From Candidatus Gastranaerophilales bacterium (GTDB lineage: Bacteria; Cyanobacteriota; Vampirovibrionia; Gastranaerophilales; Gastranaerophilaceae), in assembly GCA_944325585.1 (NCBI GenBank), contig CALVAS010000017.1, positions 1 through 33,386 of the forward strand: a DNA stretch of 33,386 nucleotides. The letters run 5' to 3'. The position numbers and the translations under genes are program-made. Below, piece by piece: positions 10,390-26,456 of this stretch; position 1 is the stretch's first letter; each line of letters starts with the position of its first letter. The notes below the pieces were generated by a model. It did no database searches and was not told where the DNA came from. It saw nothing but the letters and a program-made list of their open reading frames with translations.

Positions 10390-11142
10390 TTGGGAAACGA
10401 TAATATTAACAAATCAAAATACATGACAACACAGTGCGAAAGGCAGAAAGTAAACTTTTTCCAAAAAGCTGATGAACTTTTGCAGAAAAAATTTTACAAA
10501 GAAGCTGCCGCAAATTATCTTAATGCAATTTTGATTTCGCGGGATGATGCCAAATCTTATTTTGGACTTGGCATGTGTTACAAAAACACAAAAAATTACG
10601 CAAAAGCAATCAAATATCTTGATAAAGCGGTTCAAATAGACGAAAACTATTTTGATGCATATTATGAACTCGGCATCTGTCATCTTCTGGAAGGAATTCC
10701 ATGCGGAGCAATCAAGAATTTTGTAAGAGCAGTACAAGTAAATCCTGACAATCCGGACGCTATTTTGCAGCTTGGAGTTTCGCATGAGTCCTGCGAAGAA
10801 TATGATATGGCTCTGATGATTTATCAAAAATTAATCGAAAACTCACCGGAATTTACAAAAGCATACGAGCATAAATCTTCGCTTTTGATGAAAATAGGGC
10901 AATATAAAGAGGCCTGTCTTGTTCTTAATGAACTTGTAAAAAGAAATCCTGCCGACACCAATGCCTTTGCCGGAATCGGCGTCTGTCTGGACAAACTTGG
11001 CAAACGAAGTGATGCACAAAGATATTACAGAAGATTTTTGCAGAAAAACCCGCTTTCAAATCAGGCGCAGTTTATAAAATCACGTCTTGAAAAACTGAAA
11101 TCGCTTGCAGCGTCAAAAGTTAAAAAATTCAGCGTGGTGTAG
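10390..11142 (+). CDS. Tetratricopeptide-repeat protein
   Basis: A protein of up to 250 residues made mostly of TPR helix pairs. Recognisable units include AKSYFGLGMCYKNTKNYAKAIKYLDKAVQIDENYFDAYYELGICHLLEG, AILQLGVSHESCEEYDMALMIYQKLIENSP, and AFAGIGVCLDKLGKRSDAQRYYRRFLQKNP, about six repeats in all. It has no signal peptide or enzymatic domain and probably acts as a protein-binding scaffold. The start is either TTG 10390, which has AGAGG 6 nt upstream, or ATG 10423, which lacks a ribosome site; I prefer TTG. It is monocistronic. Partner unknown; a longer TPR protein is encoded at 18868. Confidence 0.85.
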   Translation: MGNDNINKSKYMTTQCERQKVNFFQKADELLQKKFYKEAAANYLNAILISRDDAKSYFGLGMCYKNTKNYAKAIKYLDKAVQIDENYFDAYYELGICHLLEGIPCGAIKNFVRAVQVNPDNPDAILQLGVSHESCEEYDMALMIYQKLIENSPEFTKAYEHKSSLLMKIGQYKEACLVLNELVKRNPADTNAFAGIGVCLDKLGKRSDAQRYYRRFLQKNPLSNQAQFIKSRLEKLKSLAASKVKKFSVV

Positions 11143-20859: not shown

Positions 20860-21732
20860 TTACTCTCCCAAATTTATCTGAGAGAATTGAACTATTTTAT
20901 TTTTGCCGCGTTTTTTCGCATTGTATAAAGCGTGTTCCGCATAACGAATAATCGTATTTACGTCCTCATCTGTATCTTCAAGACACGGATAAGTTGATAT
21001 TCCGCCTGAAATCGTAATCGGATGTCTCTCTTCTTCTCCTGCGGGAATAAATTCCATTTTTTCAATGTCGCGGCGGAAACGTTCCGCAAAAAGAAATGCA
21101 TTTTCTTCAGACGTGTTCGGCAGAATCAAAAGAAACTCTTCATCCCCGTATCTTGTCAAAATATCTTCTTTTCTGATAAGCTGTTTCAACTTGTCAGCAA
21201 TAGAACGAAGTAAAACGTCTCCCCAGTCATATCCGTAAATATCATTTACGACTTTAAAGAAGTCTAAATCGAACAAAAGACATGAAAGTTTGGTTCCGTA
21301 ACGTTTTGCCCGTGACATTTCCTGTTCCAGACGTTCATGAAGATATTTTCTGTTATGCAGTCCTGTCAACTCGTCAGTTGTTGAAACCTGTAAAAGTTTT
21401 TCGCGTAAATCACGGATTTTCAACATTGATTTTGCTCTTATCAAAAGTTCATCATTATCAACCGGAGTTTTAATCATATCGTACGTATAAGCACGAACAG
21501 TCGAACCCTTGAACACTTCGCCCACAAAAAGCACCGGTGCCTTGAATTTGACAACCATCAAAACATCTTTTATATCCGGAACATCTTCAACAACAATCAA
21601 AGCCGGATTAAGCATTTCATAATCACGTAATTTTTCGGCATCTTCAATTCTAACGTTAACATCCTCAATACCTGACAAAACATCAGCAAGAGAAGAGGAT
21701 TTTTTACTTGTGTAAACAATTATATTTTTCAT
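20860..21732 (-). CDS. Receiver-like and degenerate GGDEF domain protein
   Basis: Member of the diguanylate cyclase family, 290 residues. The first ~105 residues have a receiver-like alternation of strands and helices ending in KTP, but the expected phosphate-accepting Asp is replaced in LIVVEDVPD, so it is probably not phosphorylated in the normal way. The GGDEF domain (~115-285) has DLDFFKVVND (155-164) for metal and substrate binding and RKED (187-190), an intact inhibitory I-site exactly five residues before the signature. The signature itself is GDEEF (196-200) instead of GG(D/E)EF: the second Gly is Asp. Either activity is reduced or it acts as a c-di-GMP receptor (inference). AGGA precedes the ATG. 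It is divergent from the alarmone-synthetase-like gene. Confidence 0.88.
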   Translation of the reverse strand: MKNIIVYTSKKSSSLADVLSGIEDVNVRIEDAEKLRDYEMLNPALIVVEDVPDIKDVLMVVKFKAPVLFVGEVFKGSTVRAYTYDMIKTPVDNDELLIRAKSMLKIRDLREKLLQVSTTDELTGLHNRKYLHERLEQEMSRAKRYGTKLSCLLFDLDFFKVVNDIYGYDWGDVLLRSIADKLKQLIRKEDILTRYGDEEFLLILPNTSEENAFLFAERFRRDIEKMEFIPAGEEERHPITISGGISTYPCLEDTDEDVNTIIRYAEHALYNAKKRGKNKIVQFSQINLGE

Positions 21733-21858: not shown

Positions 21859-24729
21859 ATGACAAAGGTTAGTGCAGAATTAAACAGATTTTTAGAAAAA
21901 AATCAATCATTGAAATCGCTTCCCAGAAGCGAGATTTTGTCTATTATGACGGAAAAGGGCATTATAAGCCGCGAAGAAGCCGCCGACTTTTTAAAAAATT
22001 CTGCATTTGAAAAAGGTTTTAAAAACTCAATTGATGTGATTCCGGATTGGACAACACAAAAAACAGAAAAAGATTTTCAAAAAGATGCACTGACTTTTTT
22101 ACAAAATTCTATTTTGACAGCCGAACAGCAAATCGACCATCAGGACAAAACAGAAGGAGCAATTTCGCGTGCGGTAAACTTTGTCAAAGAAACTTTCGGC
22201 ACGGAAAACCGGAAATCAAATGTTGAAAATGTAATTGAAAGCAGTAAAAATGATTTAAAACAGCTTCAAGCCGCTGCGGAAGAAACGCCGGATGAGTTTA
22301 AAAATAAATTTAAGAAACTGAGAGGTGTTGAATTTTCTCCTGAAAATATTGAGTTCTGCGAACAAAAAGCAGACGAACTGAACCGTTTTGAGAGCGTAAA
22401 GGCAGCCTGCGGCAATTTAAAAAATTATCTTGAAAAATCAACTGTCAATGATGTTTCAAATGCAGGTATGCGTGATGCAAACAACGCAATTTTAAAAACC
22501 TTCAACGCACTTGGCATAAAAAACAAAAATGAAATCAATAAAATTTTAAAAGATATTGAAAACGCAAACAAAGATAACGAATCCATTCAAAAATACGGCG
22601 GAGAATTCCGAATCGCAAAAAACAAAAAAGGCCAATACACGATTTACAGAACGGACAAAAGCGGATTTCCTGCCGAGGCAACAATGGAAGAACTTCAGAT
22701 TATTGCAGATGAGATGAAACTGCGGCTGAACAAGGCCTACGCCTCCGCAGTCGGCATTGAACTTCCCGAAAATGCGAAAAATCCGGAAATTGAAAAACTT
22801 GTGAATGAAAAATACGATTCGGTAAAATCAGAGTATGAAACCGCATTCAAAAAGGCTTACGGGGACAAAAACGCCCAAACGCTTGCCGAAAACTACATAA
22901 AATCACAAAAAGAAAATACCGCCTACATTGAAACCGCAGTAAACTTAGCTTCAATGGCAACAATGGTTATGGGAAGCGGAATTATTTTAAAAGGTGCAAG
23001 CCTGCTGACCAAAACAGGCACCGGCATAAAAACAATTTCAGCGGCAACGAACATTGCCTCAAAAGCAGCCCCCGCAGTTGCAGCCATACAGCTTTCCCAA
23101 CCCGTTCAACTGGCAGAAAATCTGACCGCGGAAGAACCTGACTGGAAATCTTACGGAATGAGCACAGCCCAAGGCGCCCTCTGGGTTACCCTCGGTATGG
23201 TTTCAGGCGGAATAGGCGACAAAGCAAGACTTCTTTTAAAACAAAAAGGTCTTGCAAATGCAGTTAAAAACAGCGGAAAATCGCTTGATGAAATTATGAA
23301 TATGTACAAGAGCGGCGCAAAACTTCCCGACAATATTGCAAAATCACTTTACAAAGTAGAAACAATCGCAAACGTTCAAGGTTCCGGAGTTGAATTTGCC
23401 GCGGATGTTCTTCTTACATACTCCGCAAACAAAGCTCTTAACGGAGATGACATTTCGGTTAACGATATTCTGATGTCCTTGAACGGAACTTTAATCGGAA
23501 CTGCAATGCAGAAAAAAGTCGCTCAAATGTCAAATAAAGAAAGATTTACATTTTTACAAAATGAACTTGCAAAATCTCATACAAATCTTTCAAAATCAGA
23601 TTTGGAATTGCGGACAAATATGCTGGTTGAACTTTCCGACCTTGCCAAAAGTAAATACGGAGACAGTCTTTATCATACAACAATTCAAGGCAGCGACGGC
23701 AAACAGATTTTAAGCGAAAAAACCGAAACAGATGCACGAAATCAGGCCGAAATAATAAACAAAAAAGCAGAGCGGCACGAAAAACTTATCGTAAGTTATA
23801 TGGAAGATGCCGGACTCGGTGTTGATAAAACTTCAATGACACACCGTGCAAAAAGTGAACAAAGTTTGTACGACAAAATTAAAAATGCAATTCTTGACGA
23901 AAAACATCCGGCGACTTTTGACGAATCAATTGCGGCAATAAAAGACGCCATCGGAACCCGTACGGAACTTTCAGACTTTAATTATAAAAACCATCCGGAC
24001 ATTGTGGCAATGTATAAAAAAGACCCGAAAAAAGCTGTTATGATGGCGGCAGAACGCCAGAGCGAAGAAATGTGCGAAAAAGTTAAAGAAATTATCCGCC
24101 GGCAGGCCGCGGACGAGAATACACCCATAAAAGCAACGAGAATAACCAATTATATGGGTAAAGACGGCATTCCGTATTTTTCTGCGAAACAGGTTGCAGA
24201 ATTGCGTGACTATGCGGCAGAGCGCGGAATTGATTTGAACGTCAAAGACAAGTTAACAAAAGTTCGTCCGTCAGGATACACTGCCCTTCAAATGAATTTT
24301 GTAACTAAAGAGGGTTTTGTATATGAATGGCAGCTTCGGGGCGAAAAAATTAACAAATTTGCCGAATGTGAACATGTACCCTATGACATTCGGGAAAATA
24401 AAGATGTCACAGGCGGACGGAAAATTCTGAAAAATCTTTACGCGCCGATTGAAACCGCCGTAAAGCGGCTTGATGAAGTTCAATACGAAAATTATAACAA
24501 ATATCTGACCGCACATTACGAATACTTGAGAATGCAGGAACTCGGATTTGAAAGCACTCCGCCGAGACTTGAAGATTTTGGTCTGAATGATCCGAAACTC
24601 AAAGCTGAAAATCTTGAACTTTTACACGACCTTGCGGAAAAACTGAAAAAGAATAAAATTGATGAACCACAGGCATTGAGAACATATGCAGCAAAAACAG
24701 AAAAGAAAATTCATATTCCGAACAAATAA
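21859..24729 (+). CDS. Large protein with C-terminal RelA/SpoT-type synthetase domain
   Basis: Residues ~660-860 of this 956-aa protein resemble the alarmone synthetase fold: HRAKSEQSLYDKI (662-674) for ATP binding, KDAIGTR (695-701) with the metal-binding Asp696, RPSGYTALQMNF (803-814) with the base-stacking Tyr807 (the usual His of GYRSxH is Gln811), and VYEWQLRG (821-828) with the catalytic Glu823 of the EIQIR motif. No HD hydrolase, TGS or ACT domain is present, so it is not a housekeeping Rel. The N-terminal ~350 residues are charged and helical; ~360-460 is a Gly/Ala-rich hydrophobic region. The layout recalls toxins with a membrane-interacting middle and a C-terminal nucleotide-modifying domain, but no secretion signal is visible. 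The Shine-Dalgarno is weak. The small downstream gene could be its partner. Whether the product is (p)ppGpp, (p)ppApp or a modified RNA cannot be told. Confidence 0.8.
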   Translation: MTKVSAELNRFLEKNQSLKSLPRSEILSIMTEKGIISREEAADFLKNSAFEKGFKNSIDVIPDWTTQKTEKDFQKDALTFLQNSILTAEQQIDHQDKTEGAISRAVNFVKETFGTENRKSNVENVIESSKNDLKQLQAAAEETPDEFKNKFKKLRGVEFSPENIEFCEQKADELNRFESVKAACGNLKNYLEKSTVNDVSNAGMRDANNAILKTFNALGIKNKNEINKILKDIENANKDNESIQKYGGEFRIAKNKKGQYTIYRTDKSGFPAEATMEELQIIADEMKLRLNKAYASAVGIELPENAKNPEIEKLVNEKYDSVKSEYETAFKKAYGDKNAQTLAENYIKSQKENTAYIETAVNLASMATMVMGSGIILKGASLLTKTGTGIKTISAATNIASKAAPAVAAIQLSQPVQLAENLTAEEPDWKSYGMSTAQGALWVTLGMVSGGIGDKARLLLKQKGLANAVKNSGKSLDEIMNMYKSGAKLPDNIAKSLYKVETIANVQGSGVEFAADVLLTYSANKALNGDDISVNDILMSLNGTLIGTAMQKKVAQMSNKERFTFLQNELAKSHTNLSKSDLELRTNMLVELSDLAKSKYGDSLYHTTIQGSDGKQILSEKTETDARNQAEIINKKAERHEKLIVSYMEDAGLGVDKTSMTHRAKSEQSLYDKIKNAILDEKHPATFDESIAAIKDAIGTRTELSDFNYKNHPDIVAMYKKDPKKAVMMAAERQSEEMCEKVKEIIRRQAADENTPIKATRITNYMGKDGIPYFSAKQVAELRDYAAERGIDLNVKDKLTKVRPSGYTALQMNFVTKEGFVYEWQLRGEKINKFAECEHVPYDIRENKDVTGGRKILKNLYAPIETAVKRLDEVQYENYNKYLTAHYEYLRMQELGFESTPPRLEDFGLNDPKLKAENLELLHDLAEKLKKNKIDEPQALRTYAAKTEKKIHIPNK

Positions 24730-24758
24730 ATTAATAAACGGACAAGGATAACAAAATT

Positions 24759-25217
24759 ATGTATAATAAAAAAGAGGATGAAAGCATGGAACCAATAAAT
24801 CTCGGAAAACTTAATAACATAGCAAGAACAGCGGCAAAAGGCAAAGTTGACAGCTTTGAAGAAAGAACCAGAAGAGTTGTTAATCAATTGAAAGAGCACG
24901 CTGAACGTGAAGTTTGCGAATTCGGCCCGTTTAAAACAGTACGCGTAAACGCCTCCGCGGTCAATCCGAAAGATGCTTTGCAAGATTTGATATTGCAGAT
25001 AACTCCGCTGCCCAAATCATTGAAAAATGAGGTCGCAAACTTTGAAAAACTCCGCTATCTTGAACTTATCGGAGAAGGTTCCATGGGCCAGCAGGAAAGT
25101 GTAATTCTTAAACGCGGCACAAAGAAGGAAATCCTTGCCAAACTTAATGAAGAAGATTTTGTAAACAAAGTTCTTGAAAAGGCAAAAGAATTTAGAGTAA
25201 GTTTTATTGAAGATTAA
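24759..25217 (+). CDS. Hypothetical protein downstream of the synthetase-like gene
   Basis: No family recognised. The frame is 152 residues from ATG 24759 (AAGGA 10 nt upstream) or 143 from ATG 24786, which has AGAGG at a better 8-nt spacing. It is soluble, mixed alpha/beta by composition, with a basic helical N-terminal third, a single Cys, and a Lys/Glu-rich C-terminal helix (KEILAKLNEEDFVNKVLEKAKEFRV). It begins 29 nt after the 956-aa gene on the same strand with no terminator between, so the two are probably co-transcribed. An immunity protein, antitoxin or chaperone role would fit the position, but only position supports it. Confidence 0.7.
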   Translation: MYNKKEDESMEPINLGKLNNIARTAAKGKVDSFEERTRRVVNQLKEHAEREVCEFGPFKTVRVNASAVNPKDALQDLILQITPLPKSLKNEVANFEKLRYLELIGEGSMGQQESVILKRGTKKEILAKLNEEDFVNKVLEKAKEFRVSFIED

Positions 25218-25260: not shown

Positions 25261-25797
25261 ATGGCAAAACCTCAAATTAAAATTGAACCGATGCAGCGGG
25301 AGCATCTTGATGACATAATCCGCTTGGAAGAGCAGGCTTACGGCCCCCATCACTGGTCAAAAGAATCATTTTTTAACGAAATTAACAACGAACTTGCCAG
25401 ATATTACTGCGCGTTTGACGAAAGCGGCGAACTTGCCGGATATGCGGGCTGCTGGCAGATTTTAGAGGAAGCGCATCTGACAAATATTGCGGTTTCGCCC
25501 GCCCGCAGACGAAATCATATCGGTGAAGCGCTTTTGACGGCAATTATCAAATCCTGCATTAATGAAATGATAAAATATATTACTCTTGAAGTCCGCGTCT
25601 CCAACATGCCGGCAATCAGTCTTTATGAAAAATACGGCTTCAAATCGCTCGGAATCCGCAAAGGATATTATCAGGACAATAATGAAGATGCCTTAATAAT
25701 GTGGACAGAAAATATATTTTACGATAAATTTAAAATTAAATACGAACAAAATCTTAAAAATTTGAACGAAAAAGCAGGGATTATTTATAAATTATGA
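25261..25797 (+). CDS. rimI: RimI-like GNAT N-acetyltransferase
   Basis: Probable ribosomal protein S18 N-terminal alanine acetyltransferase. The 178 residues contain the GNAT core: an N-terminal MQREHLDDIIRLEEQAYGPHHWSKESF typical of RimI, the strand-loop LTNIAVSPARRRNHIGEALL (73-92) for acetyl-CoA, and LEVRVSNMPAISLYEKYGFKSLGIRKGYY (109-137) with the expected catalytic Glu110 and Tyr122. About 25 extra Lys/Asn-rich residues extend the C-terminus beyond the usual ~150. It overlaps the next gene by 4 nt (ATGA). The substrate S18 is assumed from family membership; GNAT proteins are often mis-assigned, but the match over the whole length is good. Confidence 0.87.
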   Translation: MAKPQIKIEPMQREHLDDIIRLEEQAYGPHHWSKESFFNEINNELARYYCAFDESGELAGYAGCWQILEEAHLTNIAVSPARRRNHIGEALLTAIIKSCINEMIKYITLEVRVSNMPAISLYEKYGFKSLGIRKGYYQDNNEDALIMWTENIFYDKFKIKYEQNLKNLNEKAGIIYKL

Positions 25798-26456
25798 CAG
25801 AAGAAGCCGTAAAACCTCGTGTTAGAACAGTCAGAACTTCAAAATCAGGTTTAAAGTTCAGCATAAGCAGTCTTTTGCTGATTATTTTTTGTTCGTTTCT
25901 TCTTGTAATTTCAACATTCATACAGCTTAACATCAGCCACCTCGGCATTCCCGCAGAAATCTTTTCAGGCAGAGACTTGAAGATTCAGGATTACATCCAT
26001 ACCTTCAATCTTATTCCGCAGGTGCCGGCAGTTATGTTTATCGCGGCACTTCTCGGCAGAAAATTTGGTTTGACAAGCGTTATAATCTACATTTTGACAG
26101 GACTCTTCATCATGCCGGTTTTTGCACTCGGAGGGGGCTGGCAATATATCGGAGAATATGGTTTCGGATATATTTTAGCTTATATTCCGGCCGTATTTTT
26201 GACAGGCACAATCCTCAAAAACGGATTTACCTACAAAAACATTTTTAAAGCACTTTTTGCAGGAATTTTAACTATTCACATTATCGGAATAATTTATATG
26301 CTTATTATCGCCGGAATCAGACATGAAGGATTTATGTTTACGAGCGGCTGGATTCTTGCACAGAGCGGAATTAAAATTATTTACGATTTTATCTTCAGCT
26401 TTTTCGCGGTTCTGGTTGCAAAATACGCACGGCTTGTTTTGTGGCTTTATATGTAA
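25794..26456 (+). CDS. bioY: BioY-family biotin transporter S component
   Basis: Integral membrane protein of 220 residues with about six hydrophobic segments after a basic cytoplasmic N-terminus of ~25 residues. The stretch LLGRKFGLTSVIIYILTGLFIMPVFALGGGWQYIGEYGFGYILAYIPAVFLTG (residues ~85-138) matches the BioY signature: a Gly-rich loop after PVFA and a GFGYILAYIPA-type helix. BioY captures biotin and works with a shared ECF energy module or alone; no EcfA/T genes are adjacent. It is translationally coupled to rimI by ATGA overlap. No biotin-synthesis gene is nearby. The unusually long first loop (SHLGIPAEIFSGRDLKIQDYIHTFNLIPQVP) differs from the textbook protein, so substrate is probable rather than certain. 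Confidence 0.78.
   Translation: MTEEAVKPRVRTVRTSKSGLKFSISSLLLIIFCSFLLVISTFIQLNISHLGIPAEIFSGRDLKIQDYIHTFNLIPQVPAVMFIAALLGRKFGLTSVIIYILTGLFIMPVFALGGGWQYIGEYGFGYILAYIPAVFLTGTILKNGFTYKNIFKALFAGILTIHIIGIIYMLIIAGIRHEGFMFTSGWILAQSGIKIIYDFIFSFFAVLVAKYARLVLWLYM

What the first reader, a model, noticed from the sequence alone, without database searches (positions are those of the whole stretch)
21859..25217. 956-aa protein with a C-terminal alarmone-synthetase-like domain and a small co-transcribed neighbour
The C-terminus keeps the key synthetase features (RxKS...K, Asp696, Tyr807, Glu823) without any HD hydrolase or regulatory TGS/ACT domain, fused to a long helical N-terminus and a Gly/Ala-rich hydrophobic middle. 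Hydrolase-free synthetases are toxic when active (toxSAS proteins, the secreted toxin Tas1). A small orphan gene follows after 29 nt and could be the antidote. The layout differs from small toxSAS and from CapRel-type fusions, so it may be a new toxin, effector or phage-defence architecture.
Basis: partly seen in the sequence, partly recalled or inferred. Interest (0 to 1): 0.82.

Follow-up and report, generated by a model that had tools for sequence, protein, structure and literature searches.

The report
Alarmone-synthetase toxin with dedicated antidote gene
A gut bacterium of the non-photosynthetic cyanobacterial lineage carries a large, fast-changing protein that ends in an alarmone-making enzyme domain and is followed by a small partner gene that looks like its antidote, suggesting an unrecognised family of toxins.

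Summary
The 956-aa protein (21859-24729) ends in a RelA/SpoT-type synthetase domain (residues 606-950; pLDDT about 97; closest solved folds are small alarmone synthetases, Z 11.2). Asp696, Tyr807 and Glu823 show no exception where the column is filled. Pfam misses this protein, but 16 of 18 relatives match PF04607. In a 292-genome phylum sample, all 85 matches lie in the window's own family (Gastranaerophilales). The small gene belongs to an undescribed protein family that accompanies the domain through architectures of 320-4355 aa: 19 of 19 synthetase loci picked without regard to it carry it. In one same-genus genome the big gene is absent from the locus while an open copy of the small gene remains, as expected of an antidote. 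The locus keeps its flanks, in whole or part, in three genera, but the big proteins differ there in their tails (none, acetyltransferase, HExxH, HD). Giants with a calpain-like tail carry a second dedicated small gene. I read this as a lineage-specific polymorphic toxin/antidote system with a divergent pyrophosphokinase. Activity, toxicity and export are not shown; T4SS and T6SS markers were not found in 21 genomes; phage defence is not supported.

The parts
21859..24729 (+). 956-aa big protein (P0001): helical N-terminus, hydrophobic middle, C-terminal synthetase domain
21859..22029 (+). residues 1-57: short helical N-terminal tag shared with otherwise different giants (14 rows, the query included, in a profile search of 78 ORFs of 600 aa or more; e.g. 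L048, L086, L092, L103, L106)
22054..22938 (+). residues 66-360: helical N-terminal region, also found in giants that lack the synthetase (L162-L164, L052)
22942..23517 (+). residues 362-553: Gly/Ala-rich hydrophobic stretch, mostly low model confidence; possible membrane or translocation segment (inference)
23674..24708 (+). residues 606-950: RelA/SpoT-type synthetase (pyrophosphokinase) domain
23845..23877 (+). R663-x-K665...K673: predicted ATP-binding motif (function recalled for the family)
23944..23961 (+). D696-x-x-G-x-R701: predicted Mg-binding Asp (syn2)
24271..24297 (+). S805-G-Y807-T-A-x-Q811-x-N813: acceptor-base (syn3) motif with Q where (p)ppGpp synthetases have H
   Evidence: motif meaning from PMC12226406
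24325..24339 (+). E823-x-Q-x-R827: catalytic Glu (syn4)
24759..25217 (+). small partner gene (P0002), proposed antidote; start supported by relatives is 24786
20860..21732 (-). GGDEF gene, conserved left flank of the locus
25261..25797 (+). GNAT gene, conserved right flank
25794..26456 (+). BioY gene, conserved right flank

Best explanation
The pair is one allele of a polymorphic toxin/antidote system of the Gastranaerophilales family. The big protein carries a C-terminal RelA/SpoT-type pyrophosphokinase that, when free, would transfer pyrophosphate from ATP to a nucleotide or tRNA acceptor and stop growth; its N-terminal part would handle delivery or localisation. The small protein would bind the synthetase domain and block it in the producing cell. 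Shown by computation: fold, intact active site, near-obligate pairing, shared divergence of the pair, tail exchange at one locus, an orphan small gene. Inferred: co-transcription, enzymatic activity, toxicity, inhibition by binding, delivery to other cells.
For: Fold: residues 608-948 at pLDDT about 97; VIA Z 11.2 to a small alarmone synthetase, 10.9 to the exported synthetase 8vx3, 10.8 to CapRel, 8.6 to Tas1; Foldseek RelP at probability 0.99 though E 0.04. Active site invariant. Pairing: 19 of 19 synthetase loci picked before the small family was searched have it (L036-L055 minus L052); of 87 small-family ORFs in fetched loci, 86 lie within 2 kb 3' of a synthetase ORF. Three giants with the same N-terminal region but no synthetase have no small-family gene (L162-L164). 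Orphan: in L095 the big gene is missing between conserved upstream DNA and an open homologue with 52% identity. Shared divergence: Mantel r 0.83 over 85 pairs, 0 of 2000 permutations; partial r 0.69 controlling for GNAT and BioY, n = 12 loci, 0 of 5000. Polymorphism: L048 and L051, same locus and genus, have synthetases 23% and partners 27% identical, against GGDEF 93%, BioY 78%, GNAT 77%, TPR 67%. Second module/partner pair: calpain-like module plus ~100-aa gene, 25 of 29 listed places within 4 kb, 18 of 29 within 120 nt.
Against: No assay of activity or toxicity. No known export signal or domain was found; VirB4 and VipB were each found in 0 of 21 genomes. In 25 of 96 ORFs the synthetase is internal, not C-terminal, unlike a classical toxin tip. 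The pair sits at one chromosomal site in three genera, which also fits a physiological role. P0002 has no recognisable relation to known antitoxins. 11 of 96 synthetase ORFs lack the small family by profile; 9 of the 11 have another small ORF there. Correlated distances can arise from shared ancestry alone; the partial test has 12 loci only. Sequence-level support is weak for this protein itself: PF04607 misses it, and Foldseek has no match at E <= 0.001.
Confidence: 0.6

Rival explanations
1. An intracellular stress or regulatory enzyme: an alarmone synthetase of this family whose activity is switched by the small subunit, with the N-terminal region and tails as sensors; nothing is exported.
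For: One chromosomal site next to a GGDEF gene and housekeeping genes in three genera; no export signal found, no T4SS/T6SS marker in 21 genomes; tight two-gene unit.
Against: The genome already has another RSH-type protein (743-aa frame). Tails differ among close species and include an acetyltransferase and HExxH-bearing stretches. An open small gene remains where the enzyme is gone. The pair changes faster than its flanks.
Confidence: 0.2
2. A toxin-antitoxin or abortive-infection unit acting only inside the producing cell against phages (CapRel-like in function).
For: toxSAS toxins with adjacent antitoxins and CapRel are known (PMC11782079); synthetase domain plus adjacent small gene; VIA Z 10.8 to CapRel over 228 residues.
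Against: No PADLOC match; no relatives in viral contigs, in phages (synthetase domain only) or plasmids; neighbours scanned in the window are housekeeping genes; multi-enzyme giants of up to 4355 aa are unlike toxSAS modules.
Confidence: 0.1
3. A host-directed or protist-directed effector set: the giants carry several enzyme modules and the small genes are secretion chaperones or self-protection.
For: Calpain-like, acetyltransferase and HExxH-bearing tails; gut habitat of the lineage; RelA/SpoT domains exist in T3SS effectors (PMC3482391, passages).
Against: The small family follows the synthetase domain, not the N-terminal region. No injection system was identified. An alarmone synthetase is not obviously useful in an animal cell.
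Confidence: 0.1

Closest known systems
Polymorphic toxins with RelA/SpoT-like toxin domains (T7SS/ESX, MuF; PMC3482391, passages seen)
   Same: RelA/SpoT domain, mostly at the C-terminus (71 of 96 here), small gene directly downstream, tail exchange
   Different: No known trafficking domain; synthetase internal in 25 of 96, with further modules behind it; partner family undescribed in the libraries searched; one lineage, and one locus kept in three genera
Exported alarmone synthetases, EAS (PMC12691689, abstract, sections 3 and 9, passages seen)
   Same: Same fold as SaEAS 8vx3 (Z 10.9); the T7SS-type AaEAS has a likely downstream immunity gene
   Different: None of the export modules listed there was found by Pfam; syn3 is [A/T/S/G]xQ, not GxN as in SaEAS; four lineage names searched in its main text gave 0 occurrences
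Tas1/Apk1-Tis1 and Apk2-IapK/Aph1
   Same: Synthetase with adjacent inhibitor gene; Tas1 Z 8.6
   Different: syn2 and syn4 keep the arginines of (p)ppGpp synthetases (R701, R827); no hydrolase among the neighbours scanned
toxSAS toxin-antitoxin modules and CapRel (PMC11782079, abstract and passages seen)
   Same: Synthetase without hydrolase, paired with a small protein; CapRel Z 10.8
   Different: 956-aa protein with relatives up to 4355 aa; P0002 lacks the YxxY motif, which that paper's section heading calls crucial for inhibition (12 of 84 family members have a YxxY anywhere)

Membership tests
RelA/SpoT-homology synthetase (SYNTH) domain | Synthetase fold | tested here: met
   AF2 pLDDT about 97; VIA Z 8.6-11.2 to 14 solved alarmone synthetase entries
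RelA/SpoT-homology synthetase (SYNTH) domain | Catalytic residues R-x-K...K, D, Y, E | tested here: met
   64 of 64 rows; no exception in filled columns among 96 ORFs for R663, K665, K673, D696, Y807, E823
RelA/SpoT-homology synthetase (SYNTH) domain | Pfam PF04607 match of this very protein | tested here: not met
   No match for P0001 and none at its place in a PF04607 search of its genome at E <= 1; 16 of 18 members of A1 match at E <= 1, best 1.3e-7
Polymorphic toxin | Variable C-terminal modules on a shared N-terminal part | tested here: met
   Tails none, GNAT, HExxH-bearing or HD-module at one syntenic locus
Polymorphic toxin | Immunity gene directly downstream | tested here: inconclusive
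   Position and pairing are met; protection was not tested
Polymorphic toxin | Recognised trafficking domain | tested here: not met
   No Pfam, NCBIfam or PADLOC match in the N-terminal part
Exported alarmone synthetase (EAS) | Sec signal peptide or WXG/LXG, XopAD, MuF, DUF4157 or Rhs/PAAR domain | tested here: not met
   No Pfam match to any such domain; no signal-like hydrophobic start by eye; SignalP was not available
toxSAS toxin-antitoxin module | Toxicity neutralised by the partner | not testable with these tools
   Needs expression in E. coli
toxSAS toxin-antitoxin module | Antitoxin of pZFD, Tis1 or Panacea type | tested here: inconclusive
   None listed among structural matches of P0002; best Z 6.6, rmsd 6.8, 90 residues, to PURA
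Phage defence (CapRel-like) | Match to a catalogued defence family | tested here: not met
   0 PADLOC families for P0001 and P0002

The most novel reading that the evidence does not exclude
A stackable kind of polymorphic toxin. Enzyme modules are added at the C-terminus as cassettes, each with its own antidote gene, while older modules stay fused and older antidotes stay behind in reverse order (synthetase then calpain in the giant; calpain partner then synthetase partner behind it, in L086, L097 and L108). The synthetase module has an acceptor motif, mostly [A/T/S]xQ, seen neither in (p)ppGpp (SxH) nor in Apk2 (GxN) enzymes, so it may have a new product. Partner family tracks motif class: Q enzymes carry the P0002 family (85 of 87), N enzymes another small family (7 of 7), H enzymes none (0 of 2).
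Probability: 0.25. Interest if true: 0.8.

Novelty: new variant of a known kind. Interest (0 to 1): 0.63.

Why it matters
It would extend toxic alarmone synthetases to a lineage of gut bacteria for which my paper searches showed no such toxin, with a new antidote family and an acceptor motif that predicts an untested substrate. The natural absence of the big gene with retention of the small one, and the match between motif class and partner family, make antidote function and substrate specificity directly testable.

Tried and rejected
Phage or plasmid origin: no relatives in viral contigs by degenerate patterns, in phages by tblastn of the synthetase domain (P0002 was not searched there) or in plasmids by tblastn of both. 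These are single-sequence or pattern searches and would miss distant relatives. Known export route: VirB4 (PF03135) 0 of 21 and VipB (PF05943) 0 of 21 genomes, 13 of them of the genus (each family rang in 1 of 14 control genomes); phage sheath 6 of 21, not in this genome. Other systems were not searched. PHROGs gave weak matches to P0001, best endonuclease VII (phrog_3281, E 0.0035, residues 719-796), which lies inside the synthetase domain and which I take as chance. Known fold for P0002: Foldseek 0 matches at E <= 0.001, VIA best Z 6.6, too weak to use; known antitoxin folds were not in the list, which excludes nothing. Foldseek's top rows for the full-length model are MukBEF chains (E 0.005, 0.013), taken as coiled-coil matches. 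The N-terminal-region profile also hit TPR proteins; I treat those as compositional and lean on the BLAST result. GHKL-like for the shared tail of L049, L087 and L163, and HExxH/zincin-like for L039 and L044, are by eye; Pfam gave nothing for L039, L044 and L049. Literature: the listings showed me no paper on such toxins in this lineage; that is a statement about those searches only.

Sampling: L036-L055 were picked by me from the P0001 matches before the small family was searched; L086-L145 because they had a P0002-family hit; L146-L161 and L165 because they had a synthetase match but no such hit; L162-L164 because they had only the N-terminal region. So 85 of 96 is not a population rate; the figure free of that choice is 19 of 19. 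L052 ends 121 bases after its ORF, so its missing partner says nothing. Alignment A3 took 70 of the 82 rows listed (12 divergent rows left out), and one search dropped 6 N-terminal-only rows; one search then aligned all 96.
Full report
WHAT IS THERE. The window is contig C17 of a 1.76-Mb draft genome. Four of five relatives in named records are titled Candidatus Gastranaerophilales or Melainabacteria. The two ORFs are as reported. Neither has a usable match in Pfam, NCBIfam, PHROGs or PADLOC. The P0002 homologues start at the Met at 24786.

THE ENZYME DOMAIN. In a set of 18 relatives, 16 of 18 match PF04607 at E <= 1, best 1.3e-7; the window's own row does not. The profile's best PDB matches are a GTP pyrophosphokinase and the exported Streptomyces synthetase 8vx3, at weak E-values of 0.03 and 0.09. 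AlphaFold on the 956-aa protein (70 rows) gives about 97 pLDDT over 608-948; mean 79.9, pTM 0.49. VIA aligns this region to B. subtilis SAS1 (Z 11.2, 168 residues, 2.9 A), SaEAS (10.9, 187), CapRel (10.8, 228) and Tas1 (8.6, 166). Foldseek puts RelP at probability 0.99 but E 0.04, with no match at E <= 0.001. In the 64 synthetase-bearing rows of alignment A3, R663, K665, K673, D696, R701, N764, G806, Y807, Q811, N813, E823, Q825, R827, E838, H839, Y842, D843 and K848 are unchanged. Over all 96 ORFs there is no exception for R663, K665, K673, D696, Y807 or E823 where a residue is aligned; R663 and K665 are gapped in 13 ORFs, K673 in 9, D696 in 2.

SUBSTRATE. PMC12226406 (abstract, sections 3 and 16 read) gives syn3 SxH for guanosine enzymes and GxN for Apk2, with syn2 AVR versus RYT and syn4 IR versus YH. 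The column mapping for syn3 and syn4 is visible. Here syn2 and syn4 keep the arginines (R701 and R827, 64 of 64 rows; 93 and 85 of 96 ORFs), but syn3 is [A/T/S/G]xQ (Q811, 64 of 64). Among 96 ORFs, Q811 is in 87, N in 7, H in 2. The 85 ORFs with a P0002-family partner are all of the Q class. The 7 N-class ORFs (L154-L158, L160, L161) have another small gene (alignment A7), perhaps a distant relative of P0002 (hhalign probability 57.6). The 2 H-class ORFs (L153, L159) have no comparable gene right behind them. Two Q-class ORFs (L152, L165) lack a profile match but have a 138- and a 132-aa ORF in the same place. The N and H groups are small and related among themselves, so this is a lead. The product cannot be told from sequence.

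DISTRIBUTION. Relatives of some part of P0001 occur in 149 of 191 genomes of the family. The domain profile finds 85 of 292 genomes across the phylum, all 85 in the window's own family, 22 of 115 genera (the list of non-matching genomes was cut). The window's genome has one other RSH-type protein, in a 743-aa frame (its domains were not examined).

THE PARTNER. The P0002 family has matches in 101 of 191 genomes. In the 20 loci L036-L055, fetched only for resemblance to P0001, 19 have the synthetase and all 19 have the partner (in L055 the ORFs overlap by 62 nt). Over all fetched loci, 85 of 96 synthetase ORFs have it within 2 kb, 81 of these within 110 nt, median 28 nt; that rate is shaped by selection. 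Of 87 partner ORFs, one (L095) has no synthetase beside it. Giants that share the N-terminal region but lack the synthetase (L162, L163, L164) have no partner, so the partner goes with the enzyme domain. P0002 is predicted as alpha-beta4-alpha2 with pLDDT 90-98 per ten-residue block from residue 31 and a disordered N-terminus; no solved protein is convincingly similar. Distances of domain and partner correlate (r 0.83, 85 pairs, 0 of 2000 permutations), and still do after correcting for GNAT and BioY at the shared locus (partial r 0.69, 12 loci, 0 of 5000).

THE LOCUS. TPR, GGDEF, big gene, small gene, GNAT, BioY, GCS2, KsgA are kept, wholly or in part, in 13 other loci from three genera. L036 and L041-L043 keep all of them. 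L040 is rearranged; L044, L048 and L051 keep a part; L038 and L039 keep only TPR and GGDEF, no GNAT or BioY being found in the 5 kb fetched on the other side; for L087, L113 and L116 only the GNAT-BioY side was available. Compared with the window, GGDEF is 91-96%, GNAT 64-83% and BioY 57-85% identical, synthetase 29-69% and partner 19-67%. L048 and L051, same genus, differ at 23% and 27% in synthetase and partner with GGDEF at 93% and TPR at 67%. Tails behind the synthetase differ: none (window, L036, L040); acetyltransferase in L041 (PF00583 E 1.1e-4, over its cut-off; L042 and L043 have tails of the same length); HExxH-bearing (L039, L044; by eye); HD-module relative (L048). In G013 (L095) the same GGDEF gene and the DNA in front of it lead, within 130 nt, into an open 131-aa P0002 homologue: the big gene is absent. 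G013 has a different pair elsewhere (L050).

A SECOND PAIR IN THE SAME GIANTS. L086, L097 and L108 end in a calpain-like module: PF00648 in L086 (over the cut-off) and L097 (just under it), L108 by similarity to L086. The presumed catalytic Cys, His and Asn (triad recalled) are conserved in 3 of 3. Among the fetched loci these three alone have an extra gene of about 100 aa between the giant and the P0002-family gene. Across 191 genomes that small family has matches in 27. Of its 29 listed places, 25 lie within 4 kb and 18 within 120 nt 3' of a calpain-module match on the same strand; of the other 4, two contain stops, one lies in a 694-aa frame and one (G007:C12) has no listed match beside it, the list of module matches being cut.

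MECHANISM. Best supported: a modular toxin whose synthetase is held inactive by P0002 in the producer. Known antitoxins block either the acceptor site (Tis1) or the ATP site (pZFD) (PMC11782079, abstract and passages seen); P0002 could do either. Delivery is the weakest step: no signal, no T4SS or T6SS marker in 21 genomes. Vampirovibrio, a relative, is proposed to use a T4SS (PMC4451040, passages seen), but VirB4 was not found here.

JUDGEMENT. RelA/SpoT toxin domains in polymorphic toxins are known (PMC3482391, passages seen), as are exported synthetases (PMC12691689, abstract, sections 3 and 9 and passages seen). What seems new is the lineage, the partner family, the syn3 class, the multi-module giants with separate partners, and exchange at a kept locus. 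Hence a new variant of a known kind, interest 0.63.

Noticed in passing
L086:1634-8764(-), L097:1592-8218(-), L108:1-8532(+) and the small ORFs L086:1328-1621(-), L097:1283-1579(-), L108:8550-8873(+): Calpain-like C-terminal module with its own dedicated ~100-aa gene; the small family has matches in 27 of 191 genomes, 25 of 29 listed places within 4 kb behind such a module.
   Followed up: partly
N-termini of many P0002-family proteins, e.g. L046:16247, L049:18194, L128:2071; also L086:47-811(-), L110:5717-6127(-): A short N-terminal motif of the type (I/V)(N/S)F(K/R/Q)(G/A) recurs in otherwise unrelated proteins; possibly a localisation or docking tag.
   Followed up: no
L153:2490-3554(-), L159:1519-2736(+), versus L154-L158, L160, L161: Small synthetases with H at the syn3 position have no small partner gene right behind them; those with N have a different small family.
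   Followed up: partly
L108:9987-10418 and 10437-10874 (+): Two tandem P0002-family genes behind one giant.
   Followed up: no
L037, L046, L048, L052, L141, L142, L162, L164, C-terminal about 450 aa: A shared module, matched by Pfam HD (PF01966) in L037 and L052, not of the alarmone-hydrolase type by eye, with no dedicated small gene seen.
   Followed up: no
window 24739-24767 (+): Promoter-like site (10 of 12) between the two genes could let the small gene be expressed on its own; consensus match only, 11 such sites found against 6.8 expected.
   Followed up: no
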